DNA from: Halichondria panicea | Taxonomy: Eukaryota > Porifera > Demospongiae > Suberitida > Halichondriidae | Assembly: GCF_963675165.1 (NCBI RefSeq) | Contig: NC_087385.1 | Span: forward strand, 3,286,501-3,350,500 | Reading direction: 5' to 3' | DNA length: 64,000 nt | In this document: one piece after another, positions 2,960 to 46,400 of the stretch | Layout of the letters: each line of letters starts with the position of its first letter | Position numbering within the stretch: the first letter of the stretch is position 1 | Made by a program: the position numbers and the translations under genes | Notes under the pieces: generated by a model | The model's input: only the letters and a program-made list of their open reading frames with translations | Databases searched by the model: none | What the model was told of the DNA's origin: nothing

Positions 2960-4330
2960 TTGAACAAGATTAGGCAGGCTAACAACTTTTTCAAACAGTA
3001 AAAGTGTACCATGAGGTGTGAACACTAAGTGTGATCAACAGACTAACGAATAAGACAAATACAGATATAAATTCCATACTAACCACAAACAGACACAATG
3101 CATGTTCAGACACTCAGTGATAAAAAATTTTCGTTTGCACCATCTGATCAAGCATGTGTTACTATGAATGTATGCAAAAAACTACTAAGGCTGAAAATGT
3201 GTCTGATAAACGCTAATGTCTGTAAGAACAGACAATCATCAGACACAACCTACTTGTAGGGGGATATATTGAGAGTCACATAGTAAACAAAACTCCGGAG
3301 TTGCAAAACGCCATGCAGCACCTATCAATGTCAAGCCCCACCCCTGACATACGGGCTGTATAGGGGCATTAGTAGGGCACTCACTTTCCCCGTATGGAGC
3401 GGTATCCGTGCCAGTATTGGCCGAGTTTTGGCCAGGCAGGCCGGGACAATAGGCAGGACACAATTTTTAATTTGCGCATGTGCAACTGCCATTTCCTGGG
3501 ACACAATTAAATCAAGAGAAGAGTTACTGTTTTATTCTATAAATATTAACACCAGTAACTGAGCGAGTTCCTGGGACACAATCTAGGGGACATGTACTTA
3601 ATATAAACCAGAAGAGTTGCTGATTTTTTCATTCCACCAAAGTGCTATAATTTAGAGGAGTGTTATGATGTGCAATCTACACTACCGAAAAATTCATTGA
3701 GTTATATAGCGATCTTTACCCACAAATTTTCTCAGCCGGTTCAGAAAGTTCTATAGCGATCTTTACCCACATGAATTTTAAAAGGAAATCTTCTCAGCAG
3801 GCCAAACAGTCCTGGCTCGGATTGTGTCCCAGCTGCACAACCCTGATGGTACAGCAGTGTTCTCTTTCAGACTCAACTTCGGTTTGGTCGGTTGGTCTGT
3901 CTATTGTGACCTCATGGAGCTCATCCAAAAACTTTACTGGAGGATTGTTACTGTAGCGAACTGAACAGGGATTGTGTATGGCCTTATTTATACACTTACC
4001 TTGAGCCTTGGTTTCATGTTTAAATCTGGTTACTGCTCTGGTTGCTAAGAAAAACCACCAGGAATGTCCCATGTGTGTATTATTTAGGTTGTTATTGTGT
4101 TTGAGTGTCTTCTGAGTTTGAGTGTCTTCTGAGCACTTTTGTGTAAGAGAACTCGTTACCAAGTAAATAATTTAGGGGTCAAAGGTCGCGCCCACGGCAG
4201 CTCTTTTTACACTCAAAACTCGCTCCGAGTTCCGGAAGTTGCTAATCTGGTACTGTTGATTTCAATTTGCTTCGAACGCGGTGCGTAGTAGATTACCATA
4301 CCAAAATTTGAATTTATTTTGCCGTTTTGC
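2960..4330. other. Non-coding; GGGACACAAT repeat at 3434-3500
   Basis: I see no gene here. A segment at 3434-3500 (GGCCGGGACAATAGGC, then GGACACAATTTTTAATTTGC) recurs in the same orientation at 6066-6135. The two copies flank the decayed transposon at 4.6-5.7 kb. Further copies of the short word GGGACACAAT lie at about 3500 and 3570. This could be an element border, but no clean terminal repeat was found. Confidence 0.5.
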
Positions 4331-4589
4331 TCACCAAGACTGTGACATCAGCTGAATCAGCAAGAACAGTGGCTTACACCAAAGATATTGCTGTTAGTCG
4401 TCTGGCAGAGGCTAGGCATGAATATGCCTTTCGTCTATACAAGAGATTTATTGACACTGAAAGCTCGATGAATATCATGAGCTGTATATAATGTCTCTTT
4501 TAATAGGTAACCCGGAACCCAGGGCTGTATTTAAGTGAAATTTGCTTGGCGCGTAATTGTATCTGGATCAACTGTTTGCAGGGTGTTAC

Positions 4590-5055
4590 AGAGAAATGGC
4601 TACACAAGGAAGAAAATCAGGGCGATGTGTTGAATACAGGGGTGCCTTTATGGCTGAAATCATTGACTATCCAGGTGACTTTTTTGTGTGGTTCGATGAA
4701 ACAGGCATTCGATATCAGATTCGTGGCTTACCCCCTGTTTATCACCGTTATCTCAGTTCTGAAGGTCTTATAGCACATAAAATTATGTGATAAATTTTTG
4801 CAGGGTAACCTTATTCCATGTATGCAGTCCTTTCCAGCACCTCGATCCATCTGACAACTGTTCGATTCACCATGTACATCGATTCACCAATTCACCATGT
4901 ACAATGAAGGACCTTTTACATTACCACTTTATAGTTCTGACTATAACCCATGTGAGGAGTTACATCAAGTATTACTTAAAAGACCACGACGAATTGCTCA
5001 ATCCTACATCAAGTTGTTTAGACAAGTTCTGAACTCAGCATTTTTAAGTGTCACA
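4590..5055 (+). pseudogene. IS630/Tc1-like DDE transposase remnant
   Basis: The readable piece holds EYRGAFMAEIIDYPGDFFVW, directly followed by FDETG, then RGLPPVYHRYLSSEGLIAHK. These match the central part of IS630/Tc1-type transposases; FDETG carries the first catalytic aspartate. Further right, in shifted frames, are DNCSIHHV (second catalytic D), NPCEELHQVLLK (third acidic residue region) and AFLSVT near 5040. Pieces are missing between these blocks, so the gene is dead. It converges on a decayed PB1-like gene on the other strand at 5180-5690, the same pairing as in the 8897-17352 element. Confidence 0.7.
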
Positions 5056-5179
5056 ATGTAAACAATGGATTTCACATGCAGGATATGTTTAAATTAGAGT
5101 ACAACAATTATTATAAATTACCGTGTCAAAACCCATGATATTCAGCATCAGCCATCTTCTTTCAATTTATGCCACTTGG

Positions 5180-5691
5180 TCAGCTGGTCAATACACTGTG
5201 TGCGTAATCAAATGCGTTTTCCAGGACTCGACACACTAACAGCAGGCTTCCCTTGCTTGCCGAAAAAAGGTTTGTTGGGAGGATTATCGTATGCGTCATG
5301 TCATGCTCAGGAGTTCCCTGGTGTACTTGCTTCCCAGGTTTTTCGCTTGAATTCAGTTCGTCCATCTTTTGAAGCCTCGCATCAGACAACTGGTCCATCA
5401 TCAGATGTGTCACTAGAACTTAAGGGTCTCTTTGCACGAGACAGCTTAATCCACAAATTAATCCCTTGTCTTCTGCGATGCTCTCTTTGATAGTTCTTCA
5501 TCACCTATTAGAGGAATTTGCTTCCCTTTAAAGCTGTGACCAGGTACAAAGTACCCAAGAGTGAATTCTTTACTGGCAAGGTGATCCTTTAAATCGGCCA
5601 GAAGTGCGCAAAACTGCGCAAAACATATTATCGAGTAATAAAAACTCCCATTCAACAACAGCATTGTTCCCATGAAGAGTGAAGCTTCCAC
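5180..5691 (-). pseudogene. PB1-like accessory gene remnant of IS630-type transposon
   Basis: On the - strand the frame 5691-5458 contains FTLGYFVPGHSFKGKQIPLI followed by GDEELSK. This matches the layout of the PB1-like domain in the better copy at 15516-15830 (VGYYEK, then WIVSQDDLDAMY). A further conserved piece, YDNPPNKPFF, reads in a different frame near 5265 and corresponds to ETPPDVPAITG in the other copy. Multiple frame shifts make it a pseudogene. The family assignment rests on my memory of such proteins in sponge gene models and on comparison of the two copies. Confidence 0.5.
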
Positions 5692-5699
5692 CTTACCTA

Positions 5700-6165
5700 T
5701 AATTATAATTACGCGTTATAATTATGTATTATATGCATGGATATATCCAATAACTGTGTGTGGTTGCAGGTTACTTACACTTGTCTGTTGAACATGAGAT
5801 CCAGACTGGTTGACGGTAACGATTTCGTTCCTGCCTGGACTGGATTTATGTTATGGTAGGATTTAATGGTGAATTAGATATGACCAATCTGGACGCAAAC
5901 GCCTCCAAACCACAGCTCGAGCCCACTTCAGCCATCTGTTTTCTCAAGTAGCTATAGCACGTGTTTGAGCCGGGGATGTTGCTCACCGGACGTTCCAAGT
6001 AAATTGAAATCAACAGCCATCTTTGCGTTTATTACACACACTTGATAAGAGGATTGGCCGCAAAAACCGGGCCGGGAAAATAGGCGGGACACAATTTTAA
6101 TTTGCGCATGCGCAACTGTAGCTGGGACACAATGCCAATCCTGGACGTTTCAGTGCATGACACTG
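5700..6165. other. Non-coding
   Basis: No convincing gene. The 3' part (6066-6135) is the second copy of the GGACACAATTTTAATTTGC segment described at 3434-3500. Confidence 0.5.
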
Positions 6166-6171
6166 CATATT

Positions 6172-6290
6172 GAAGGACAGTGACACTGCATTTATAAATC
6201 AATTTATTGAATTCGGGAAAACGTTGTTAATTAGTGGGCGTGCCGCTTTAAAAGGGGGCGTAGTCACTGCGCGCCGGCTCTATATAAGAT
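6172..6290. repeat. Dispersed repeat, second copy at 50165-50300
   Basis: A segment with GACACTGCATTTATAAATCA and GTGGGCGTGCCGCTTTAAAA recurs in the same orientation at 50165-50300. It flanks the outer ends of the two arms of the large inverted duplication. Confidence 0.7.
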
Positions 6291-7670
6291 GTTGACATTG
6301 AGTCCAGTCCATTGACTATCACTTGCCCACTGCCAAATTGTTTGAGAGTAAGTACCGTTACGTAGGTAGATCTGATGTCTTTGCTATAAACATTTAACCA
6401 GGTGTAAATCAATGCAGCCAGTAGCCAGCCCCACCCTCTTGTTATGCAGGGAGCCCACCCTTTTGTTATGTAGAGACCAACCCCACCCTGCAGAGAAAAC
6501 TTTGTCACAACAAACAATACTAGGTAGTTCGTACGAACCCAACGACTGGATCCACCCCTGATGTACGTATAAATCAATGTATAACTTACATGCTCTCTCG
6601 AATACATACACACATGTAGTGCAACATTTTCTAATGGCCTCTAAAAGCATTTCGTGTAGGATTGCAAATTAACCCACAAAAACTAAGTCTGTCACAATAT
6701 TCAAATTTGTATCTGGTGATCATCCCCTCGTGTTGAATTATCATTATAAGTAAGCTCAGAGGTCGGACAACACTTGAACTTTAATTCACTAATAATAATC
6801 CCAAATTGCTTTTCGTGCTTTTCGTGCTGTGTGTTGTCTCGAGGATAATGAAGTCAATGAAGTCATTCTGTTCTCTATTAATCCAATTTTATTTGCTAAA
6901 CCACACCCAAAATGTCATATCCGGCCGTAATACACTTACAAAATTACCTTGTTTGGGACAGCCAGCACTGGCCAGTAAACGAAATAGCGAGTGGCCGTAC
7001 TTCAGGGTGAGTTTTGTGTAATATTTATAGCTAGCATTCCGTGCCAAGCCGGTATATCGAGCCGGTATATCGAAGTGGCCGTACTTTAGAGAGCGAGACT
7101 CTACTGTTGTAGCCGAGTAGCTCTCTTTGTCAGAATATTTTCGTGAGACATTTTACGGGAAAAAAATCCAATAATGTTGTGCAGCAGGCTCACCTGAAAT
7201 GTCAAGTGATGTCCGACCTCTTCTGATATAAGCTCGTTACAAAGCCCCTCGAAAATGTTGCGCTATACGGTATAATATATGTCTGATAGTAACGATTACG
7301 CCCACCCTAAACATGCTGCAAAGCAGCTACAGGTGGGGTGGGCTTAATTTAAATGTGTAGATCTTAGGCTACTATTCTTAGCGGATAAGAAAACACAACA
7401 CACCACCAAAACACACCACCAATTTTCTCAATGAACATAATATTAATTGGCTGTGGATACTGAAGATTATCACGAGTCTGTGCTGCATGAGTGAGGCACG
7501 GACGAGTGATAATCATCAGTAATCTAGGGGATAATACAAATTGCTCTGCGCATGCAAAAGGATGCGTAGAAAAATGTTGACAACCCGTTTTGAACAGCGT
7601 TAGTCAGCCGCTCTGGGAGAGTCTGTCTGAGCACTGTAGTCTGACTTTTTTGGCCAGGCCGGAATCAGAT

Positions 7671-8079
7671 CATAGATGAAACGAAAGTCTACAAAGAGGC
7701 CTTGAAAACTATCTGCATTTCGCAATTTTAATTTTTGCCAGGTAACGCGCTCAAAATAAGAAAGTTGTGTTTCTTTGAGATATCATAATATCCTAAGCAA
7801 TTTATAGTACGCCTATTCTGTGGGCCACATGTAGTCACGGCCTCTTGCACAAGGCCTCAGAAAGTGCTAATGACTGACCGACATGAAAGTATGTAAGTGT
7901 CCTGGTTTAAAAATAGGTACAGATCAGAAGTGAGTCACGCTAGAATAAGCACATTTGCGAGTGGTTTATTCTCCAGTGTGTAGAAATGTAAATGTTTTTT
8001 TGGCTACCTCGCAAACCACGCCCTTAGCCCCACAGGGAAGAGTGAATTTTCGTTTCCAATCCTCTTTCCTTCATCTCTG
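7671..8079. mobile_element. GGATTGGAAACG-family element, TSD ATCAGAT
   Basis: The 409-bp element starts CATAGATGAAACG and ends GTTTCCAATCCTC then TTTCCTTCATCTCTG. It is flanked by a perfect 7-bp duplication ATCAGAT (7664-7670 and 8080-8086). It is the same insertion as 47978-48517, duplicated with the surrounding block. No coding sequence was recognised. Confidence 0.8.
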
Positions 8080-8464
8080 ATCAGATCAAGGATTGACAAA
8101 ATGAAGAACAACAAGCAGTTGGACGCATTAATTTACAGCTACCTAGCTGTGGTTACGTCGTTCGCAACCGTGGGGAAAAGGGTCATTTGAATTTGTGGTC
8201 ACCCACCAACTTGTGACCACCAACTTAGTTTGATTTGCCCCCAATGAAGACTTGGCTTAGAAGATGGGCGTGGTTACGCACAGACACACTAACCAGCCTT
8301 GCTTTTTTAATTTTTAATTTTAAATTTGTGCAGAGGTCAACAAAAAATAGCTGTAAAATGTAATCTAATACTAATCTGAGACTATAATAATTTATACAGA
8401 CAGACAGTTAATACACGAAAGAGTACGTTAGAGAGATTACTTAAAAGTTTGTAGCGAAATCCCA

Positions 8465-8700
8465 TCCACATTATTCCAGGCTGAGGTTGTATCTAAGAAA
8501 AAAGAAGACTGAAACTGATTTGTTTTGCTCACGTTGGATGTCGCGTTGTGTTATCTGGTCGGCAAAGATGACCCTTTAGGTTTATCAGAGGGGTGGTGAC
8601 CTTTATGGAAGTATTGAATTTGTCGTCCGAGCGGGAGGAGGCGTGTGGTATAAGATCACAAGAAAAAAGGAGTACAAAAAAAAGGAGTACAATGTCAATA
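8465..8700 (-). pseudogene. LINE 3' fragment, internally deleted
   Basis: This is the reverse complement of parts of 46859-47570. It retains the beginning ([14 protein letters not shown] region) and the end ([13 protein letters not shown] region) of the LINE ORF2 tail but lacks about 420 bp between them. Confidence 0.65.
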
Positions 8701-9066
8701 GTGCCAATCCCTCTCCAATATCAACAATATTGACAAGTTGATAGCATGCTCCTTTGTTGTTGTAGTAAAGGCTATACGTTGACTAGCCTCGAGACCAGGC
8801 ACATGCGCGAACTATCGTAAACTAGTTTGTTTACTAGTTTCTTTCCGTATTAACTTCTGTGAAGCTTATGCTGCGTTGTCGAGAAGTGGCCCTTTACAGT
8901 GGATTGCAGTGCACTTGCAACTCCAAAACCCAAAACAGCAAAACCACAAAATATGAATGTTGTTAATATGAAATTGTTAAACTTGTATTGGTAATGCCAC
9001 GTGGTTACTAGATCTGAATATTGATGCTTTCTTTCTAGACTCTATATAGCTAACTAACAGCTAGAT

Positions 9067-9202
9067 ATGGCCATGGATGGAGACTCTGGAATACCCTCTG
9101 AAGTAGTACAGCAGAATCACTTTGGGCATGGCCCCATGTACAGCTACAGTGGTCAAGGTTTACCTGCCCATATGATCATGAACTCCTGTCAATCACACCA
9201 AG
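9067..9202 (+). CDS. Exon 1 of transposon-borne PB1-like/SHOCT gene
   Basis: ATG at 9067 opens 45 codons (MAMDGDSGIPSEVVQQNHFG, then HGPMYSYSGQGLPAH) ending in phase 1 at CACACCAAG followed by the donor GTAATT. The next exon begins after a CAG acceptor at 15516 with two bases that complete the glycine codon, so the two exons are in phase. The exon is rich in Q, H, G and Y and looks like a disordered N-terminus. The intron originally measured about 0.9 kb and now also contains a Gypsy retrotransposon. Exon 1 is intact, whereas the downstream part is frameshifted. Confidence 0.55.
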
Positions 9203-9898
9203 GTAATTAAGCATACTGTATTTCCTGGTGTATATTAATGCATATTTCCCACCTACTACACTTTTGCCATGTAGTCTAGTGGGGTTTAACTGTCATAAAT
9301 TGGCACCTCAGGGCTACAAGGGAAAATATGGCTCATAAATTGGCACCTCAAGCATATGCAGCAAAAATAAAATTAACGGTATTTTCGATGAATGAAGATG
9401 AATGAAATGTCTTGCAAGAGAAACAAAATGTCATAAATGAAACACATAATTATAGAGTCGGGTGCAGTCTGTAAGACTAGTTCATCAAAATTCTGCTGTG
9501 TGCTTGCAGAAGGAACTGCTTTAGAGACACTCTGGGAGACTAGCTGGCTCAGGCAGACTTGCTCACTAGCACTAGTACTGCACGCACTGCACTAGGCCTG
9601 TTCAGCTTCTGTATTCAAAGAAAAAGAAGCCAGTTTAATAATAATATAGGAGTGGCTATTTTAAGCTTACCTTTGCTTGCTTACTAGCCTGGCATAGCCA
9701 AAGAGAGCTAGCTGTGTTGTTTTTTCTGGCTGGTTGAGTGCTGCAGTACTATAGGTGGAGGGAGAGGCTGACTAATTGCACAGAGAGGGGGAGTGGCTCT
9801 GTACCGGTCGCTTGGAGGGAGGGGCTGGCCGGCTGCTCATTATTCTGTCGCAAGGCTTTGAGTGTGGACTGGAGCCCTGCATGGTATGTGGTGTGGAC

Positions 9899-10044
9899 TG
9901 TAGAATTAGGGATTAGACAGGTACCAATGTAGCTTTATCAACACGAGACAACATAAGACATGCGCACAAATCATAAGGTAAAGATCACAACACTAACAAA
10001 GGATAAATACAAACAGCATACATAGTAAATACAGTTATACCACA
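9899..10044 (-). repeat. Gypsy 3' LTR
   Basis: A 146-bp terminal repeat, TGTAGAATTAGGG to TATACCACA on the + strand, identical to 15148-15293. On the element's own strand it is TGTGG...CTACA, the usual TG...CA form. Target duplication TGGAC lies immediately left. Confidence 0.93.
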
Positions 10045-10056
10045 TCTCCCCCTTAA
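10045..10056 (-). promoter_or_regulatory. Gypsy polypurine tract
   Basis: On the - strand AAGGGGGAGATG precedes the 3' LTR, the position and composition of a plus-strand primer. Confidence 0.75.
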
Positions 10057-10061
10057 GTCAC

Positions 10062-11983
10062 TCAACAACGTAAATAGTCCGGGGGACCTGGGGCTGATCC
10101 AGTTTTTGATCGAGTGTTCCGTTCAGTTGGTACAGGAGGCACATCGGTTTCATTGGTCTCAGTTTCACCTCGAAGTCGTAACTGTACTCTGTTCCTGCGA
10201 ACTTCACCTGATGGTGTATCAACTTGGTAGGAGCGTGGTTGTGTAGAGGTTGTCACAATACTCCCTGGAACCTGTCCATGTGGAGTGTCTACCCATACGG
10301 GTGTATGTTCAGGTAGCGGCATTAGTGGTCGGGCACGGTGTCGTTGGTCGTAATCACGTTTTTGTTTATGCTTGTTCTTCTCATCGGTTTCTTTAAATTC
10401 TTTGAGATATGACCACTTTGGTACGAATGTACTCTGAATTTGTGGGACATCAGTACGAATTTTTCGTCCCATAAGGAGTTCAGCTGGACTAAAACCACAA
10501 GAAGGTAGGGGGGTTGCCCTGTAGCTCAGCAGAGCCTTGCATGGGTCTGGAGAGTCCTTCAAGAGTAGTTTAGCCGTCTTGACTGACCTTTCAGCTAGAC
10601 CGTTTGACTGTGGGTGGTAAGGGCTGCTGGTGATATGGCAAAAGTTATACTTGCCTGCGAATTCCCTCATTTCTTTGCAGTTATATTGAGGGCCATTGTC
10701 GCTGATCATAATTGAAGGAATTCCATGCCGTGCGAATATAGCTTTCAGTGCTGTAATCACTCCAGATGCTGTTGTGTTCGAAAGTTTCTGTACTTCGATA
10801 AATCGAGAAAAATAGTCGACCACGATTAAGTATGTAGTCTTATCGATTTCGAACAAATCTGTCCCCACTTTCTCCCAAGGATAGCTGGGTAGTTTTGATG
10901 GCATGAGGGGCTCTCTGTGGGGAGCTGTGTTCTTTTGGCATTCTGGACAGTGTGTGACAAATGTCTCCATGGTTTTTGAGGCACCTGGCCACCATACTGA
11001 TTGGGCGACTCGCAGTCTGCAACGAACGATTCCTTGGTGGCCACTGTGGATTTTTTCCATTGTTTCTTTTCTCAACTTTTCTGGGATTACAATTCTCGAC
11101 CCATAAAGTAGCAAATGTCGGGTGTAAGTGAGTGATGACCTGACTTGATAGTACTTGCTGACTTCTCCTTTGAGTTGGTTCCTGTTGGGCCAACCTGACT
11201 TACAGAACTCAATAATCTTGGAACATGTTGGGTCCTCTGACTGTGCATGACAATATGTCTCTAGGCTGGCTTCTTCTGCAGGTAGGCTAGTAATTACGGA
11301 ATCCACTAGATTTTCGGTTTCCTTCTCTGCGTCCATGTCACTCTTTTGGGGTAGAGTATTGATGGGTGCTCGCGAAAGTGTATCAGCCAAATATAGGGAT
11401 TTTCCTGGTGAGTGGTAGATAGTGTAGTCAAATCTCATCAGTCGGATCCTGAAACGAAGTACTCGAGGTGGTAAAGTATCAAGGCTCTTCTGTCCCAGTA
11501 TTGGCACCAAGGGTTTATGGTCTGTCTCCAGTTCGAACCTTTTCCCTAGAACATATTCGGCAAACTTTTCACATGCCCATGTGAGGGCGAGGGCCTCTTT
11601 TTCGATTTGTGCATATCTAGTTTCCGTTTCGGTGAGTGCACGCGAGGCAAACGCGACCGGACGCCATTCCTTGTCGTTTTGTTGTAAGAGTACAGCACCT
11701 AAACCGTAGGCAGATGCATCGGCACTGATTTTGGTAGGCTTTTCGAGGTCGTACAAGGCCAATACTCGATTTGAAGAGATTTCTTCCTGGAGCTTTTGAA
11801 AGGCGTCATCCTGGCTTGGTGTCCATGTGTAGGGCTGTTTTGGGCTGAGGAGTTTGCGCAATGGCTGAGACAATTCTGCAATTTTGGGAGAGAATTTGTT
11901 GAGTTGGTTGACAATTCCCATGAACCTTCTCAGTTCAGTGAGGGATGCTGGAGGAGGCATTTTTCTTATGGCCTCTGTCCTTT
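10062..11983 (-). CDS. Gypsy pol C-terminal part: RT thumb, RNase H, integrase
   Basis: The frame resumes at KRTEAIRKMPPPASLTELRR just past the foldback element. RNase H shows ISADASAYGLGAVLLQ, EKEALALTWACEKF and TDHKPL. The integrase has the HHCC zinc site (HSGHQGIVRCRL ... HCPECQK) and the DDE core: GTDLFEIDKTTYLIVVDYFS, IMISDNGPQYNCKEM, and YHPQSNGLAERSVKTAK with the glutamate. A GPY-like tail follows (VWVDTPHGQVPGSIV). The catalytic residues are all present. It is separated from its N-terminal half by 1242 bp, so this copy cannot make a full polyprotein without excision of the insert. Confidence 0.92.
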
Positions 11984-11985
11984 TA

Positions 11986-13225
11986 CAGTGCAACAACCAA
12001 AGAGAGTAGATTTTTTTTTATATTATTTTTTTTCACATTTTGTGGCATATCTTCTGAAGTAAAAGTGATATGATCTATTTGAGTGCAGGTACTGAAAGTT
12101 CAATTATTGGCGCTTCCATTGGACCACCACCTGTTACATCATATGACATCATCACTATGAAATGGCTGTCTGAAGATGTGTACCTCCGAAAATATGTTAG
12201 GAATAGAAGTAGCTTATTTGTTTGAGTTAAGATCTGAAATTTATTGTGTATGTACCTGAGTATATTGCTCATCTTTTGAGCTTCAACAGAAGTCTGGGCT
12301 GCTAGTAAGTTCTGAGAAATACTGAATTTTGTTGTTTTTTGGTGGCAAATATGTTAGGAATACAACTTTCGATTTTATGCTAGTTAAGGTCTGATTTTTG
12401 AGGAGCATGTACTACAATAGCATAGAATTCATCTGTACTAACTTACAGGAGCTAGACAAGTCTTATCTTTGCTAGAGCGGCCCTTCTTGTCAAAAATGGT
12501 GATTTTGCTCTGTTTTGCTACTTTTGCTGACGTATGCAATGATATTCATTGATTTGTGACATCACAAATCATCTTGTTGTTATTTGCTACATCCAAAGGT
12601 CATGTGATGTCTACCTGCAAATACACAGTTGGTGTTGGTCATTCTGTGTCACAGGGGCGTGGTAATTGAGCTTACTACGTAGCCAAATCACCCCAAAAGT
12701 CATAAAAAGCACTGTTTTTGACAAGATGGGCCGCTCTAGCAAAGAAGAGGCTAGCCTAACTCCTGTAAGTTAGTACAGATGAAAAGTACACTATTGTAGT
12801 ACATGCTGCTCAAAAATTAGACCTTAACTAATATAAAATCGAAAGTTGTATTCCTAACATATTTGCCACCAAAAAACAACAAAATGCAGTATTTCTCAGA
12901 ACTTACTAGTAGCCCAGACTTCCGTTGAAGCTCAAAAGATGAGCAATATACTCAGGTACATGCACAACAAATTTCAGATCTTAACTCAAACAAATAAGCT
13001 ACTTCTATTCCTAACATATTTTCGGAAGTACACATCTTCAGACAGCCATTTTATACTGATGATGTCATGTGATGTAACAGGTGGTGGTCCAATGGAAGCG
13101 CCAATAGTTGAACTTTCAGTACCTGCACTAAATAGATCATATCATTTTTACTTTAGAAGATATGCCACAAAATGTAAAAAATGTGTACCAAAAAAAAAAA
13201 TCTACTCTCTTTGGTTGTTGCACTG
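11986..13225. mobile_element. 1240-bp foldback element with long TIRs, TA target
   Basis: TA lies on each side (11984-11985, 13226-13227). The outermost bases are CAGTGCAACAACCAAAGAGA at the left, mirrored at the right. The two arms are inverted copies over about 500 bp each (11986-12505 and about 12715-13225) with a unique centre of about 210 bp. TA target and CAGTG ends suggest Tc1/mariner mobilisation. It codes for no transposase. Removing it plus one TA restores the frame of the surrounding pol gene, which gives the boundaries to the base. Confidence 0.93.
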
Positions 13226-13227
13226 TA

Positions 13228-15116
13228 GGGTCAGGAGATATGCCCTCGCTATCGATGATGTGTCCTAGGTATTCGATCCTGGATTGGTGGAATTTACATT
13301 TGGCTTTGTTGAGGGTGAGCCCTTCGTTTTGTATCCGTTTAAGGACCTCGTGTAGTCTTTGGTCATGCACGTCCCTGGTGGCAGCAAATATCAGGATGTC
13401 GTCGACGTGGACAAGGACTCCTGGAATGTCAGCTAGAAGCTCGTTCATTTTCCGCTGGAAATGCTCTGGGGCACTGTTGATGCCGAAGGGTAGCTTATTG
13501 AAGCAAAATCGGCCAATTGGTGTAAGGAACGTAGTAAGGAGCCTGGACTCTTGTGACAATGGGACTTGCCAAAAACCGCTATTTGTGTCTAACTTGGTGA
13601 ACACTTTGGCCCCTGCCATTTGGGCAAGGGTGGAATCAACTTTAGGTAGTGGGTGTACTTCTCTCATCACGTTTTCATTTAATGGTTTTAGGTCGACACA
13701 TACACGGAGTTTTCCTGACGGCTTGGTAACAATGACCATTCCCGCACACCATGGTGTTGGCTCACTGACTTTAGAGATTACACCCAGTTGTTGCATTCGT
13801 TGTAGCTCCTTTTCGACTTCAGGGCGTTGTGGCAGTGCCACACGTCGTGGGACGTATATGGCAAACGGGGTGGCATCGGGTTTCAGGCGTATCGTACAGT
13901 CTGTTTTAAAAGTTCCAAGTCCTTTAAAGATCTCGGGATACTGCTGGACCACTGAATCATCTTGGATTTCTCCCACTTGTTCGAGTACTTGTAGTGCTCT
14001 AATCGCTGGGAGGCCGAGTAAGTTATTTCGGAGGTTTTCCACAACGAAAATTTTTTGAGTGCATTTTCTTTGCTGCACTTGAAGATGGACTTCTGTTTCT
14101 CCTAGCAGAGTGAGTGGTTTGCAATCTGGTCCGCAGAGTGTTTTCGTGGCTTTTTGGAGGGTAGGGGTCTGTGGCATTGATTTCCAGGTGTTTTCCGATA
14201 CTGCGGTGACTTCGGCACCTGTGTCCACCTTAAAAGTCACTGGTAGACTGTTAACTGTCACCTGGAGCTTCCATGCTTTTCCTGTTTCCCCTGTTTGTGC
14301 AGAATCTAGGTAGAACTCGTCGCTGTCGGGGTCGGGGTCTCGTACGCTCATGTTCTCTGTAATCTCGGCAACACCCTTAGAAAGGCATTGGGAGCCATAG
14401 TGTCCCTTTCGGTCACATTTGAAACATACAGCATCTCTAGCTGGACAGCGTTGAAATGAATGAGGACTTTTTCCACATCGTTGACACGTTTGTGCTTTGC
14501 TCTGTGGTTTAGTGAATCGTTTGTTCTTGGGTATGTAACGAGTTTTTACTTCTTCTAATCCAGATTGGTCACTGGCAGTGCCCTTTAGGTGGGCTGCTTG
14601 TTGTTTTACTGCTTCTCGCTGTCGCACAAGTTTCTTTGCTTTCTCCAATGTGAGGTCTGCCTCCATCTGTAGTCGCTCTGAAAGGGATTGGTCTTGAATA
14701 CCTACGACGAGGCGGTCCCGTATCATCTCATCTTTGATCGCGCCGTACTCGCAGTTGTCGGCGGCTTGGTGTAGGGAAGTAATAAAAAGTTCAATCGATT
14801 CTCCCTTTTCTTGTTGACGTCTGTTAAAACACGCTCTTTCGAAGATTACGTTCTTTCGAACCTTGAAATGGGCATCATATCTCGCGATGACGCTGTCGAA
14901 AACTTTTTTATCTTCATTGGATATTCCTGACATGTTCAGGATGTCTTCTGACGCTTCTCCCATACAGTAAAGTAGGGTACTGACCTGTCTTTCGCCTGAT
15001 TCCGTGGAAAGACCAGAGGCAATGCGATACTGTTGGAACCTTCCTTTCCAGCGACTCCATTCTTCTGGTTTATCGAAACTAAATGCATTTGGGGGTTGTA
15101 GTAAGCTTCCTGCCAT
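13228..15116 (-). CDS. Gypsy gag-protease-reverse transcriptase (N-terminal part of gag-pol)
   Basis: The frame starts at ATG 15116 (MAGSLLQPPNAFSFDKPEEW), 10 bp after the primer-binding site. The gag core spans residues 1-200. Two CCHC knuckles follow (CQRCGKSPHSFQRC and CFKCDRKGHYGSQC, about residues 214-245), then a retropepsin with VDTGAEVTAVS (about 297-307). The reverse transcriptase has VCVDLKPLNENV, FTKLDTNSGFWQVPL and LPFGINSAPEHFQRKM; the catalytic box reads HVDD rather than the common YVDD. The frame is cut by the foldback element at 13226. The last true residues are SEGISPDP; what the open frame reads beyond belongs to the inserted element. Confidence 0.92.
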
Positions 15117-15129
15117 CTTTAGAGAGGGG

Positions 15130-15147
15130 ATCCCACTTCTGACACCA
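15130..15147 (-). promoter_or_regulatory. Gypsy primer-binding site
   Basis: On the - strand TGGTGTCAGAAGTGGG follows the 5' LTR directly. It starts with TGG, complementary to a tRNA CCA end, as expected for priming of minus-strand DNA. I did not assign the tRNA. Confidence 0.75.
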
Positions 15148-15293
15148 TGTAGAATTAGGGATTAGACAGGTACCAATGTAGCTTTATCAACACGAGACAA
15201 CATAAGACATGCGCACAAATCATAAGGTAAAGATCACAACACTAACAAAGGATAAATACAAACAGCATACATAGTAAATACAGTTATACCACA
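15148..15293 (-). repeat. Gypsy 5' LTR
   Basis: Identical to the LTR at 9899-10044. It should carry the element's promoter; no clear TATA box was assigned. Target duplication TGGAC follows at 15294-15298. Confidence 0.93.
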
Positions 15294-15515
15294 TGGACGA
15301 GCTCTCTTTTTCCTAGTTGTCTTCTTGTTTAAATAGTGTTGCTATGTGGTAGCCGTGCAAGCTAATATAGCTGGATGCATTGCAACCAGTCAGCCAATCA
15401 GATGAGACATATATCAGTTAATGTACAGTGTCTCGGGGTTTATGACAGTAAACCACACCTCCCCCTCGTAGTCGGGAGGTTTACTGTATTAACTGATACT
15501 TAAACCATACTGCAG

Positions 15516-16153
15516 GAACTTCTATTGAATCATTTCGCTATATTATGCGTATAATCAACCCTAAACGAAAGAGTGATGTTATCACTCGAACTTGGCATAA
15601 TGTTTACGAAAGATTTTCCTCTTGTGGTGTGCTTAAGCAGAAGATTATGGCAACTTTTTCCCAGGAAGTGCCCGAGAGCGATGCTTTTAGTGTGGGCTAC
15701 TATGAAAAACTCAATAACTCAATAACTCAAAACGCTGGATTGTTTCTCAAGATGATCTAGATGCAATGTACCGAAGCTATGGATCTGGTCTGAAGGGCGT
15801 GTAGAGGTGGAACATTCAAAGAAACGAGATCACAGTGATGATAGCAGCGGAGAACCAAGAAATAAGCGATCAAAGAAAGAGAAGGATATTGAAGATGCAG
15901 TCTTCAGGAAAAGCACAGTGAGCTAAGGCTGTGGGCTCGTATGTATGTAAATGGAATACATGCCGATCTTGAGACTCCACCGGATGTGCCGGCTATAACT
16001 GGTCATGTTGTCAAGCGCAAAGAATCAAACCGATCACTTGCTGAAGCTCTGGCAGGAGCAGCAACAGCTGTTACCAAGATGTTAGTCCCTCCTAAGAAGT
16101 TTACGGATGGGATATCACCCTACATGCTTCTAATTGTACTAATTGTAACATGA
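15516..16153 (+). pseudogene. PB1-like accessory gene of IS630-type transposon, frameshifted
   Basis: The segment starts after TACTGCAG. Its first frame (to 15760) gives TSIESFRYIMRIINPKRKSD and later SDAFSVGYYEKLNN. A duplicated CAATAACT at 15714-15732 shifts the frame; the next frame holds RWIVSQDDLDAMYRSYGSG. A third frame holds a charged, nuclear-localisation-like stretch (SGEPRNKRSKKEKDIED). A fourth holds LRLWARMYVNGIHADLETPP and then a helix (SLAEALAGAATAVTKML). The order PB1-like fold, basic linker, RLWARM box, C-terminal helix is what I recall for a sponge protein family ending in a SHOCT-like motif. Here that motif lies next door but on the opposite strand (16169-16315). At least three frame breaks make this copy inactive. 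Confidence 0.55.
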
Positions 16154-16168
16154 ATTTGTGACAATTAA

Positions 16169-16315
16169 TTATTTTTTTGCATTTGCATTTAGACCTTTAA
16201 TGTTCCTCAAAAGCATGCTCTTTTGTTCCTGAAATTCTTCCTCTGTCAAAGTAGCATCTTCTCTAAGCTGTTGCAATGTACGTAATTGCTGTAAATACTT
16301 AAGTTGGCTTTTTAC
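16169..16315 (-). pseudogene. SHOCT-like C-terminal exon, inverted relative to its gene
   Basis: On the - strand this reads LKYLQQLRTLQQLREDATLT followed by EEEFQEQKSMLLRNIKGL and a stop (16169-16171). The pattern leucine-rich helix, LTEEEF, EQK, LL is a SHOCT-like short helical hairpin. I expect it at the C-terminus of the PB1-like protein, but that gene (15516-16153) is on the other strand. The simplest reading is a local inversion of the last exon. Confidence 0.6.
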
Positions 16316-16348
16316 ATGTATAATTTATTACTTAACTATTATAATAGA

Positions 16349-17231
16349 TCAAAATAAATATCCTGAACGCTGACAACAATCATGAGGTGTAATACTCAGA
16401 AAAGCAGACAGAATGAAGTCTTCAAGTAGCTTCGTAGCTTTGTTTGCTTTAGAGAAGGCCTCCGGGCAATACGGTGGCAGAAAATGTAATAACACCCCAA
16501 TGCTTTGGAGTTGCTTAACAACCCCATCTGTGTGACGCATTATCAAGAATGACAACACTGTGAGGATTGGAACCATTAAAAGGCCGAATGAGGAATTTAT
16601 CAATGAAATCTTCAAATATGTCAGCGTTCACATTTTCGGTTGTAATGTATGTATCTAAAAGACACAAAATTCCAATTGCTGAAAATCTCTTGCCTTCGCA
16701 CCAACAGAGAATGTACACGAGCTGGCTTTCCAACAATCGAGTACCCGTAACACCAGATACTGTTCCTTCTGTCACTTCAATAAACAAAAGCATTTCTGGC
16801 TCATACACAGAGATATCAGACAGGAACTGAGCCCTACTGGCAGCATTCTGTTGAAGTGCCACAAGACTAAGTTTTTTTCTAGAGAAATTGTTCTTCTTCA
16901 AGAATGTTGATGCATCAATTTGTGTCCCAGTTGTTTTTTGCTGTATTTCATGTAGATACATGCTAGGCTTTTCAACAATGCTATCAATGATACAAAATTC
17001 ATCATACACACTAATCTTTGACTGAGCTCCTTTCTTTTTTATAGGTTCAACATCACCTGTAGTTTCAAATCTTGTAACAATTCGACTAACTGTAGATCGA
17101 TCAATATTCAGGTTTTTAGCAATTGTTCTGATGGGTAAGCCCATGCCTATACGTTGGAAAATCATCCTCTAGCGCATATCACAAGAATAAGCAGTGGTTC
17201 TATAAGACTCAGCTGAATAACCGGTTGCCAT
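16349..17231 (-). pseudogene. IS630/Tc1-like transposase, decayed
   Basis: The gene starts at ATG 17231 (MATGYSAESYRTTAYSCDMR), is broken by a stop (TAG), and continues from 17165. The N-terminal helix-turn-helix is clear: GMGLPIRTIAKNLNIDRSTV then SRIVTRFETTGDVEP. The first catalytic motif, normally F-x-DETG, reads LLFIEVTEG and lacks the aspartate. The second, VVILDNAS, is kept. The C-terminal block reads in another frame: LLHFLPPYCPEAFSKANKAT, where residues between P and EAFSK are lost. It ends near SITPHDCCQRSGY. It is near the right end of the 8897-17352 element, reading inward, and is inactive. Confidence 0.8.
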
Positions 17232-18054
17232 TTCAAATACTGTAGTTTCTAATAGAAGTGCAATACTGAAGATAATGATATTCACAGTTGGTAATGTAAT
17301 TGTGGTTTAGCTGTTTGGCAATTCACTGTTGCAAGTGCACTGCAATCCACTGTTGGTGTTGTCTTGTCAGAAGCCAGAATAAGCTGTAACAGAAACCAAG
17401 TTCAAAACATCACGACCATTCAATCATCATAGAGGTAGATGAGAGCCTCTTCTGGTTTCAGACTAGTGTGCAAGCCTACACCATAGAGGGCCACAGCTAG
17501 CTGTAAAGCATAATACATAGAATACATAGTAGTGGGCGTGTATGGACCACGCCTATGATTAAATGGGCCTGGATTCGAGTTGACTGGACTAGGCAATCTT
17601 TTCTTTTCTTATTATGCCTCGAGGCGTAGCCGCACGAGGGATACGGTAAAGCTAGACTCGCAAGCCACTCCCTTTTCTCTGAATGGACAGGGGCGGGAGA
17701 AGAGGGACTGGTGACTCTGGGCTATAGCTAGGGTAGAGATTATTCATTGATTTTTCCACGTGATCCAAAAATTGCATTGCATTAGAATTGCGTAGCCTGC
17801 AAAAGTGATCGCGGGCTTCTTAGCTACAGTTTCAGCATGGTTTGATGCTAGTGCTAGAAAAGAAAAGATGATGGAGTAAAGGCATTCAGCTAGGATATAG
17901 TCATCTAAGACACCAGCAGAGATTAGCTGTGTTTTAGTTTTACGTGATGAGAACTGGCAGCAGTGTGTTATTGGTTGCCTAAAGCTTTTAATAACCTGTA
18001 GAGAATTGAGAGTAGTATACAAGGATCTATGATATCAAAAGGCTGGCTAGATAG

Positions 18055-18395
18055 ACCGAATTACCGGGACACAAAAAAATAATTACGGCTACGTTAAAGT
18101 CGAAGTGTCCCTTGTATTAGGGTGTCCCACAGTAATTAGAACGAATATTTCCCCATTTAAGGACGGCCGAGGCTAGCTCTGCAGTCTTTCGTGCAGCTGT
18201 GTACGCGGGTCTACAAAGGTGTCTTCAACCGTCAGTGATATATTACGGTGCCAGAGAGTAGAGAATCCAGAGATCGTTCTAATTAGATCGGGACGTGTAA
18301 AAATATTTACATTTCCTGTTGTTCCTTAATATAGAATGAAAAAAGTTACGTAAGTCCCTTAGAATAGAGTGTCCCGGTAATTTGGGTGAATACGG
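18055..18395. mobile_element. MITE with CCGTATTCACCCGAATTACC ends, left end clipped
   Basis: The right end reads GTGTCCCGGTAATTTGGGTG then AATACGG. The left end begins only at CCGAATTACCGGGACAC. A full copy with TA on both sides is at 44391-44913 in the other arm. Confidence 0.7.
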
Positions 18396-18548
18396 TACTT
18401 GTCTGCATCTGGATAATTTGCACGTGACATTAATATTTAATAGCATTTGTGATTTACATAAGCTGTAGCCCAGAGTCACCAGTTCCTTTTCTCCCGCCCC
18501 CCAATCAGAGAAAAGGGAGTGGCTTGCGAGTCTACGGTAAAGCTGACT

Positions 18549-18570
18549 GTGTGTGTGTGTGTGTGCTGAT
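18549..18570. repeat. (GT)n microsatellite
   Basis: About ten GT repeats. The mirror copy in the other arm is a (CA)n tract near 44192. Confidence 0.85.
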
Positions 18571-43400: not shown

Positions 43401-46400
43401 TCACTCGCTCTTTTGTTTATTGAATAGTTATTGAGTTGCACTCACGTACATTGTCATGAGTACTTCTTTGATTAATATTCTTCTTTGAGTAATATTCGTT
43501 CACTAACTTCACAAAACTGAACATGAAATAAACAATAGTATTTAATATGCCCAGGCCATAATTTATGGCCTGTATTTCTGTACAACTTGTCTTGTAGCCT
43601 ATATCTATATACTGTCATTGTAAAGCTTGGATCTTGCCACTTGCTGCATGTACGTACATGTACTTGCCTGCTGTACCTTAGGCCTTTAGTGCATCAAACC
43701 ACACCCATAGCCATAGGCATAGGTCAAAGGTCGTCAACTATCGAACACTCAACTAGCGAAGGCTCAACTAGCGATCACTCAACTAGCGAAGCTCAACTAG
43801 CGATCACTCAACTAGCGAAGGCTCAACTAGCGAAGCTCAACTGCAGAACACCAAGTTGAGAACACAACTGCTGAGTGACCTTCAGGGCCACCGTAGATGA
43901 TCTTTTTCAGCGACTTCTGGCCCTGCTCAATGGATTTGAGCCCTGCCCTTCCCAAAATCCTGGCTACGCCACTGAAATAGCTAGCTTCTTTAGCAGCTTT
44001 TTCTGGCCAACAAAAAGCTTGCGCTTTAGTGCAAGGCTAACTCATAAGTTGAATAGAAAGTTTGTGCGAACAGATGATGCTATGAAAGATTCTGAAGAGA
44101 CTGCTACAGCCTTCAATGTGAGTTAAACTAGCCATAACTTGAGAAAGAAGCTTTAGTTTGCTAATCCACGAATCAGTTACAGCTGGAAAAGACACACACA
44201 CACACACAGTCAGCTTTACCGTAGACTCGCAAGCCACTCCCTTTTCTCTGATTGGACGGGGGCGGGAGAAAAGGGACAGGGACTGGTGACTCTGGGCTAC
44301 AGCTTGTGTAAATCAGGAATGCTATTAAATGTCACGTGCAAATTATCCAGATGCGTCAAAAGCTAAAGACACATGCACAGAAGACAAGTACCGTATTCAC
44401 CCGAATTACCGGGACACTCTATTCTAAGGGACACTTCGGACTTACGTAAGTTTTTTCATTCTATATTAAGGAACAACAGGAAATGTAAATATTTTTACAC
44501 GTCCCGATCTAATTAGAACGAAAAGAGCATGTTAGCTCGATAGAGACTCAAAACTCTTAGAAACTCTCTGGATTCTACTTTCTGGCACCGTAATATGTCA
44601 CTGACGGTTGAAGACACCTTTGTAGACATGGAACCCGCGTACACAGCTTCTAAACTGCACGAAAGACATTTTAGCTGCAGAGCTAGCTGGAATCGAGGCC
44701 GTGTACATACCTTAAATGGGGAAATATTCGTTCTAATTACTACGGGACACCCTAATACAAGGGACACTTCGACTTTAACGTAATTTTCTCTCAAGACTCG
44801 AACCTGGTAGACCAGATTGTTGTACAACTCGGAGATGAAGATCTTGCTCTATTCCAAGGGACACTGCAAGCCGTAATTATTTTTTTGTGTCCCGGTAATT
44901 CGGGTGAATACGGTATACAGCTCTATCTAGCCAGCCTTTTGATATTATAGATCCTTGTACCAGTGTCTGTTGTGCCACAACTTGTGGAATCCTTAGCATG
45001 GAACAGCTGATGAACGTAGAAATCTTGGCAGTCCTTCTTTGAACCGAGGAGTGGCAGCGATTTAAGACAGCTTGTACAAGTCTGACTACTCTCAATTCAA
45101 CTGCTGCCCTCTGCCATTATCTGTCTTGTATTGTACAGGTTATTAAAAGCTTTAGGCAACCAATAACACACTGACTTTCGGCTGCCAGTTCTCATCACGT
45201 AAAACTAAAACACAGCTAATCTCTGCTGGTGTCTTAGATGACTATATCCTAGCTGAATGCCTGATGTCGTTATTACTCCATCATCTTCTCTTTTCTAGCA
45301 CTAGCATCCATTCTCAAACCATGCTGAAACTGTAGCTAAGAAGCCCGCGATCACTTTTGCAGGCTACGCAATTCTACTTAACCTTACGCAATTTTTGGAT
45401 CACGTGGAAAAGTCAATGAATAATCTCTACCCAAATTCTGGTAGAGACAGAAGCTATAGCCCAGAGTCACCAGTCCCTTTTCTCCCGCCCCCGTCCAATC
45501 AGAGAAAAGGGAGTGGCTTGCGAGTGTAGCTTTACCGTATCCCTCGTGCGGCTACGCCAAAGATTGCCTAGTCCAGTCAACCTATAGCCTCGAATCCAGG
45601 CCCATTTAATCATAGGCTTGGTCCATACACGCCCACTACTATGTATTATGCTTTATAGCTAGCTGTGGCCCTCTATGGTGTTGTCGAGAAGGCTTGCACA
45701 CTAGTCTGAAACCAGAAGAGGCTCTCATCTACCTCTATGATGATTTGATGGTCGTGATGTTTTGAACTTGGTTTCTGTTACAAATGGGAGCTTATTCTGG
45801 CTTCAGACAAGCCTTCTCGACAACACCATAGAGGGCCACAGCTAGCCAGCAAGTTTTCTCGACAACGCAATAGAGAGCATAAGCCACAGCTTCACAGAAG
45901 TTAATACGGAAAGAAACTAGTAAACAAACTAGTTTAGGATTTAATTTTACAAAAGTTTACTAAACTCACCCAGATTCTGGGTGACTCAGTTCGCGCATGT
46001 GCACTATCACCCATGCAATAGAGACCACTCAATGTAGTTAAGGCAGGCTACAGCAGTATTTTAAACTAAAAATGAGAAAGGTATATCCTAGTGATAGTTC
46101 ATTGTAAATTAATGAAACTTGAAAGCAATGTAGCCATACACACACACTACCTGCTGAACAGGTTTGGAGGTCACACGACATTTGGGGGTGGAGTTACAGC
46201 TCTTTAAACTTGTTTTCAAAAAGCGGAAAGCTTACAAGTGCAGCCACACCCCCCAAAATTTTTTCTCAAAAAGGTATCAATTTTACCTTTCTTGTGGTTG
46301 GTGGATATAAAGTCTACTACTTTTAGTTTAGCAGATATTCCTAATACGCATATTAATAAGGAGGGCATTAAATAGAAATGATATTCAATTCCTGATTTCA

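What the first reader, a model, noticed from the sequence alone, without database searches (positions are those of the whole stretch)
4590..17352. Two-gene convergent IS630/Tc1-like transposon with a PB1-like/SHOCT accessory protein, seen twice
In the 8897-17352 element a PB1-like gene (+) converges on a DDE transposase (-). At 4.6-5.7 kb the same pair occurs in mirrored layout: transposase (+), PB1-like gene (-), again convergent. Two independent decayed copies with the same architecture argue that the accessory gene is a real part of the transposon. IS630/Tc1 elements normally carry only a transposase; a PB1-like fold with a SHOCT-like tail suggests a self-assembling or adaptor protein. The better copy has perfect 25-bp ends and an empty site in the other duplication arm.
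Basis: partly seen in the sequence, partly recalled or inferred. Interest (0 to 1): 0.82.

Follow-up and report, generated by a model that had tools for sequence, protein, structure and literature searches.

The report
Two-gene Tc1-type transposon with PB1 partner
This piece of an unnamed, probably sponge, genome carries two decayed copies of a jumping gene that, unlike its textbook relatives, brings a second protein along with its transposase; most related elements found in the same genome carry the same pair of genes facing each other, so the second protein is probably part of how these elements move.

Summary
Copy A (8897-17352) has exact 25-bp ends, a decayed IS630/Tc1-type transposase (-), a decayed PB1-like gene (+), and an empty TA site in the other arm of an inverted duplication (45829-45830). 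Copy B (4253-6016) is a more decayed element of another subfamily with the mirrored layout. In the 131-Mb host genome, 66 of 78 transposase loci have an accessory-gene match within 5 kb, 64 of the 66 convergent. In one family, 5 of 5 elements defined by both ends hold both genes. Distances of the two proteins co-vary (Mantel r 0.75, 0 of 10,000 permutations). The accessory protein is modelled as a PB1 fold (pLDDT mostly above 90), a conserved WARMI...PPxxP helical segment and a C-terminal SHOCT hairpin. The PB1-like domain lacks the acidic OPCA loop, and the SHOCT paper's experiment did not support oligomerisation, so "self-assembling" is not supported; an adaptor or cofactor role is likelier but untested. 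Corrections: in copy A the SHOCT end is inverted onto the minus strand, a nested 6.2-kb insert splits the gene, and most paired copies of copy A's ends are short and MITE-like.

The parts
8897..17352 (.). Copy A: decayed two-gene IS630/Tc1-type transposon, split by a nested insert
   Evidence: exact inverted ends; sister copies of 2265 and 2232 bp
8896..8920 (+). left terminal inverted repeat (first base belongs to the TA target)
   Evidence: 176 matches with up to 3 mismatches genome-wide, reversed control 0
17329..17353 (-). right terminal inverted repeat
9067..9202 (+). accessory gene, exon 1 (N-terminal region), donor CAAG|GTAATT
   Evidence: read by eye; homologous stretch in both sister copies
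15516..16124 (+). accessory gene, exon 2 in broken frames: PB1-like domain and WARMI segment
16139..16311 (-). 3' end of the accessory gene (SHOCT hairpin), inverted in this copy relative to two sister copies
   Evidence: about 90% identical to both sister copies but in opposite orientation; minus-strand reading; accessory profile E 4.3e-10
16349..17216 (-). transposase (HTH + DDE_3), frame-shifted; main ORF 16515-17168
9245..15495 (.). insert absent from both sister copies; carries a Gypsy-type LTR element 9899-15294 with identical 147-bp LTRs
4253..6016 (.). Copy B: decayed two-gene element of another subfamily, mirrored layout
4253..4278 (+). copy B left inverted repeat, preceded by TA
   Evidence: similar ends next to the transposase in L056, L058, L059
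5991..6016 (-). copy B right inverted repeat (2 mismatches; no TA kept)
4397..5086 (+). copy B transposase relics
   Evidence: tblastn of intact relatives, E down to 2e-20
5151..5559 (-). copy B accessory relics (PB1-like piece and SHOCT region)
   Evidence: tblastn E down to 1e-12; genome search hit C9:3291648-3291794 (-), E 5e-6
45829..45830 (-). empty TA target site in the other arm of the inverted duplication

Best explanation
Copies A and B are relics of a clade of IS630/Tc1-mariner DNA transposons, mostly 2.2-2.8 kb long (1.66-3.07 kb in the 12 measured), with TA targets and inverted ends of about 25-64 bp, whose gene-bearing members mostly carry two tail-to-tail genes: a DD34E-type transposase and an accessory protein with a PB1-like domain, a conserved helical WARMI...PPxxP segment and a C-terminal SHOCT hairpin. 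SHOWN: linkage, convergence, enclosure of both genes by the ends, co-divergence of the two proteins; PREDICTED: the PB1 fold. INFERRED (about 0.45 on its own): the accessory protein is a non-catalytic cofactor that works with its own transposase, holding it to the ends or to a host factor through the basic PB1 face and the SHOCT hairpin, much as Harbinger-type elements need their second, Myb-like protein (recalled). Also inferred: short copies with the same ends are MITEs moved in trans.
Against: No function was tested. 12 of 78 transposase loci have no accessory match within 5 kb and 22 of 87 accessory loci no transposase match; one stretch holds a 300-aa transposase frame and no accessory profile hit within its 3.7 kb (L041). 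21 of 86 DDE_3 loci lack an accessory locus within 5 kb; some are long open frames, so one-gene relatives may exist here. dS between families is saturated and within-family counts are small, with one accessory comparison at w 4.2, so purifying selection on the accessory gene is only implied. Pfam's PB1 model matches 1 of 76 rows (E 0.007).
Confidence: 0.75

Rival explanations
1. The accessory protein is not needed for the reaction but protects the element: an antagonist of host silencing or a titrator of a host PB1/ubiquitin-like pathway, comparable in role (recalled) to VANC or MURB proteins of Mutator-like elements.
For: Accessory is less conserved than the transposase (22-49% against 30-60% identity among the same 12 pairs), as host-facing proteins often are; the PB1-like face is basic in the OPCA loop, which suits docking on a partner other than itself.
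Against: Co-divergence with the transposase and frequent linkage fit a direct partner as well or better; nothing here shows a host target.
Confidence: 0.25
2. The accessory protein binds the transposon ends itself and assembles a multimeric complex by PB1 and SHOCT self-association.
For: PB1 fold hits include filament-forming p62 and NBR1; ends of most families seen carry two spaced TTGCA-like words (by eye; not copy B's family nor C6:6999323); the SHOCT paper names oligomerisation and nucleic-acid binding as hypotheses (PMC3581485, passages); acidic residues do occur just after the loop (mean 3.7 in the wider region, D81 invariant).
Against: 0 of 76 members have two or more acidic residues in the OPCA loop; the SHOCT paper's experiment did not support oligomerisation.
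Confidence: 0.15
3. Chance neighbourhood: a host PB1-like gene that happened to be hit by Tc1 elements, or one captured passenger.
For: 22 of 87 accessory loci have no transposase match within 5 kb.
Against: 64 convergent pairs against about 0.55 chance neighbours expected over 78 loci (0.007 per locus); the pairing spans accessory proteins down to 22% identity; both genes lie inside the inverted ends.
Confidence: 0.02

Closest known systems
IS630 / Tc1-mariner DNA transposons (classical, one gene)
   Same: HTH + DDE_3 transposase above the NCBIfam IS630 cut-off, mostly DD34E, TA target, short inverted ends, short MITE-like derivatives
TBE and Tec elements of ciliates (Tc1/mariner with three ORFs)
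   Same: Tc1/mariner DD34E transposase plus further ORFs, one in complement in Tec (PMC7325037 section 8)
   Different: their extra ORFs are described there as a small unknown ORF and a zinc-finger protein (TBE) or a recombinase (Tec); no PB1 or SHOCT protein is named in that section; ends of about 80 or 700 bp
PIF/Harbinger, ISL2EU, Mutator MuDR (two-gene eukaryotic DNA transposons; recalled)
   Same: transposase plus a non-catalytic or auxiliary protein encoded inside the same ends
   Different: other transposase superfamilies and other accessory proteins (recalled, not compared here)
PB1 domains of aPKC, p62, NBR1, p40phox
   Different: no acidic OPCA loop; not recognised by the Pfam PB1 model at E up to 0.1 in 75 of 76 rows
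SHOCT domain (PF09851)
   Same: short C-terminal helical hairpin; 52 of 76 members match at E up to 0.1, best 1.5e-8
   Different: described mainly from bacteria, with 19 eukaryotic species in the 2013 paper; the words sponge, Amphimedon and transpos* do not occur in its main text

Membership tests
IS630/Tc1-mariner superfamily | HTH domain followed by DDE_3 catalytic domain, IS630 family profile | tested here: met
   NF033545 above curated cut-off in 6 of 6 (3 from this genome, 3 public relatives); DDE_3 above cut-off in 3 of 3; Sleeping Beauty 1.1e-6 and Mos1 8e-4 among solved structures
IS630/Tc1-mariner superfamily | DDE/D triad with Tc1-like spacing | tested here: met
   34 residues between second D and E in 13 of 17 measurable rows, 35 in 3, 36 in 1; 2 of 19 rows not measurable
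IS630/Tc1-mariner superfamily | TA target duplication and terminal inverted repeats | tested here: met
   inverted ends beginning TA in 11 of 12 stretches with strong ends, the twelfth only when extended by eye; empty TA site for copy A
IS630/Tc1-mariner superfamily | single-gene organisation (usual, not strictly defining) | tested here: not met
   66 of 78 transposase loci with second gene
PB1 domain | ubiquitin-like beta-grasp PB1 fold | tested here: met
   predicted, not solved: residues 11-100 in blocks of pLDDT 90-97; best PDB matches are PB1
PB1 domain | recognised by Pfam PF00564 | tested here: not met
   1 of 76 at E up to 0.1 (E 0.0072)
PB1 domain | type I acidic OPCA motif | tested here: not met
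   0 of 76 with two or more acidic residues in the beta3-beta4 loop, mean 0.66 acidic and 2.2 basic; acidic residues remain after the loop, D81 invariant; motif definition recalled
PB1 domain | type II lysine in beta-1 | tested here: met
   K 48 and R 7 of 57 ungapped rows; definition recalled
SHOCT domain | C-terminal match to PF09851 | tested here: met
   52 of 76 at E up to 0.1; 11 matches in the genome, 4 over the curated cut-off, all at accessory loci, 4 of 6 matched but below the cut-off
TBE/Tec ciliate elements | three ORFs incl. zinc-finger protein or recombinase; ends about 80 or 700 bp | tested here: not met
   two genes found, ends about 25-64 bp

The most novel reading that the evidence does not exclude
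A whole clade of IS630/Tc1-mariner transposons works as a two-component system: the transposase cannot act efficiently without a transposon-encoded scaffold built from a PB1-like (ubiquitin-fold) docking domain and a SHOCT hairpin, which would be a new kind of transposition cofactor in a superfamily usually held to need only its transposase.
Probability: 0.4. Interest if true: 0.78.

Novelty: new variant of a known kind. Interest (0 to 1): 0.62.

Why it matters
Tc1/mariner elements are prized as minimal, one-protein movers (recalled). A diverse clade that keeps a second gene through large divergence says that a cofactor can become close to obligatory in this superfamily, gives SHOCT a eukaryotic setting where its role can be tested, and offers an element with a separable regulatory part. 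The searches of open papers made here showed no description of it in the listings and passages seen (one search listed 15 of 241 papers); Repbase reports and most subscription journals were not searched.

Tried and rejected
Chance neighbourhood and captured host gene were rejected. The idea that SHOCT belongs to the transposase strand (copy A read alone) was rejected: two sister copies show it is an inverted accessory 3' end. An early worry that one accessory gene (L059) lies in tandem with its transposase came from a strand error in my own script and was corrected.

A transposase-only and an accessory-only locus on C1 (8745219 and 8739536) are convergent but just over 5 kb apart and were counted as unlinked. 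One search used the 100 listed of 176 end matches. One search used 95 accessory rows (longest contig over about 5 kb among the best 120) and 60 of the 120 transposase rows. A2/A3 hold 76 of the 120 accessory relatives listed.
Full report
WHAT IS IN THE WINDOW. Copy A has exact inverted ends ACAGTGGATTGCAGTGCACTTGCAA at 8896-8920 (+) and 17329-17353 (-); 100 shuffles give none. The element proper runs 8897-17352. Two sister copies elsewhere in the genome are 2265 and 2232 bp long. Copy A's left part (8895-9244) and right part (15496 on) are continuous in the sisters, so about 9245-15495 is insert. It contains an LTR element with identical 147-bp LTRs (9899-15294), itself interrupted by a foldback element with 36-bp perfect arms (11984-12019/13192-13227). 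The transposase (16515-17168, minus; a further piece within 16349-16627 in another frame) and the accessory pieces (plus) are both broken. The accessory 3' end (16139-16311) is inverted relative to both sister copies, about 90% identical, so its SHOCT peptide reads on the minus strand. The other arm of an inverted duplication (main blocks 73-84% identical) has no element at 45829-45830, where it reads CTCTA|TGGTG; copy A reads CTTTA|CAGTGG...CCACTG|TTGGTG. That is a TA target with one base lost on the right.

Copy B lies between inverted ends 4253-4278 and 5991-6016 (24 of 26 positions match). Intact relatives align to transposase relics at 4397-5086 (+) and accessory relics at 5559-5151 (-), and the ends resemble (5-6 mismatches in 26) those beside the transposase in L056, L058 and L059, each of which has TA outside.

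IS THE SECOND GENE PART OF THE TRANSPOSON? The host genome (131 Mb, unnamed) was searched with two transposases (73 and 113 matches) and four accessory proteins (32, 87, 82, 83 matches). Merged, these give 78 transposase and 87 accessory loci; 66 of 78 transposase loci have an accessory locus within 5 kb, 64 of those 66 convergent, one same-strand, one divergent; about 0.007 neighbours per locus are expected by chance. Twelve transposase loci and 22 accessory loci stand alone; copy B counts among the latter, since its transposase relics did not appear. Profiles on the 41 fetched stretches find both genes in 38, on opposite strands and convergent apart from copy A's inverted SHOCT piece, with one transposase-only and two accessory-only. 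Strong inverted ends enclose both genes in 12 of 41 stretches (16 of the 41 are joined from two or more loci, and not all of those reach both ends), of 1.66-3.07 kb; 11 begin with TA, and the twelfth can be extended by eye to TACAGA. The cleanest test is the family with ends TACAGCAGATTGCAGTTAACTTGCC: 11 matches in the genome form 5 pairs and one orphan, and 5 of 5 pairs hold both genes; one of the five has its accessory frame split. A second check: the Pfam SHOCT model hits this genome 11 times at E up to 0.01, 4 over the cut-off, 11 of 11 at accessory loci. The DDE_3 model gives 96 matches in 86 loci, 65 linked and 21 not; among the unlinked are long frames such as C16:4345041 and C1:8509955, perhaps other Tc1-type families without the gene.

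DO THE TWO GENES EVOLVE TOGETHER? Over 12 non-redundant pairs, identity distances of accessory and transposase correlate at r 0.754, with 0 of 10,000 label permutations as high; accessory identities are 22-49%, transposase 30-60%. This fits long joint inheritance. dS is mostly saturated between families, so selection is implied by open frames and conserved residues, not measured.

HOW IT MOST LIKELY WORKS. Shown: two genes inside one mobile unit with TA-flanked ends, in several families. Inferred: a cofactor acting with its own transposase. Without an acidic OPCA loop the PB1-like domain is unlikely to form the p62-type head-to-tail chain, so it more likely docks on an acidic partner, and the SHOCT hairpin provides a second contact. 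Which partner (transposase, end DNA or host protein) is open. The conserved WARMI...H...D.PP..P segment is a candidate for the transposase contact; this is a guess. Copy A's ends occur 176 times, but 18 of the 20 inward pairs among the 100 listed places are 277-1403 bp, so gene-less derivatives prevail, as in MITE families elsewhere.

KNOWN OR NEW. Tc1/mariner elements with extra ORFs are on record in ciliates (TBE, Tec; PMC7325037 section 8), but no PB1/SHOCT protein is named there. Searches for such an element in open papers showed none in what was listed or read. I file it as a new variant of a known kind: membership in IS630/Tc1-mariner is well supported, one-gene organisation is not met, and the cofactor role is a hypothesis. 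Five accessory/transposase pairs among the public relatives share an identical longest-contig length, one of 15,743 bases, which hints that the pairing goes beyond this genome; no positions could be seen, and in the longest contigs (5-6 Mb) sharing a contig means little.

Noticed in passing
9899-15294: Gypsy-type LTR retroelement, gag-pol on minus strand, 147-bp LTRs 100% identical, so a young insertion; its pol is interrupted by a nested element.
   Followed up: partly
11984-13227: Foldback element inside the LTR element: 36-bp perfect outer arms, 439-bp arms 92% complementary.
   Followed up: no
9245-9898 and 15295-15495: About 850 bp around the LTR element that is also absent from the sister copies: probably a further, older insertion into the accessory intron.
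   Followed up: no
6745-18564 against 44192-49584: Inverted duplication in blocks, main ones 73-84% identical; copy A is present in one arm only.
   Followed up: partly
266-2535: Minus-strand frames with a zinc-knuckle-like cysteine cluster and protease-like stretch: perhaps another retroelement relic (by eye).
   Followed up: no
2756-2905: 30-bp tandem repeats (four overlapping 60-bp copies) that keep frames open on both strands.
   Followed up: no
L041 (G000:C1:10826148-10829819): A 300-aa transposase frame of the same clade with no accessory profile match within its 3.7 kb: possible one-gene member or deletion.
   Followed up: no
ends in L076/L037, L089/L051, L088/L045, L084/L057, L066/L039, L063/L032 and window 8896-8920: Ends of most families for which ends were found share the design TA-C..-TTGCA-like word-spacer-TTGCA-like word, a possible bipartite binding site (by eye).
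   Followed up: no
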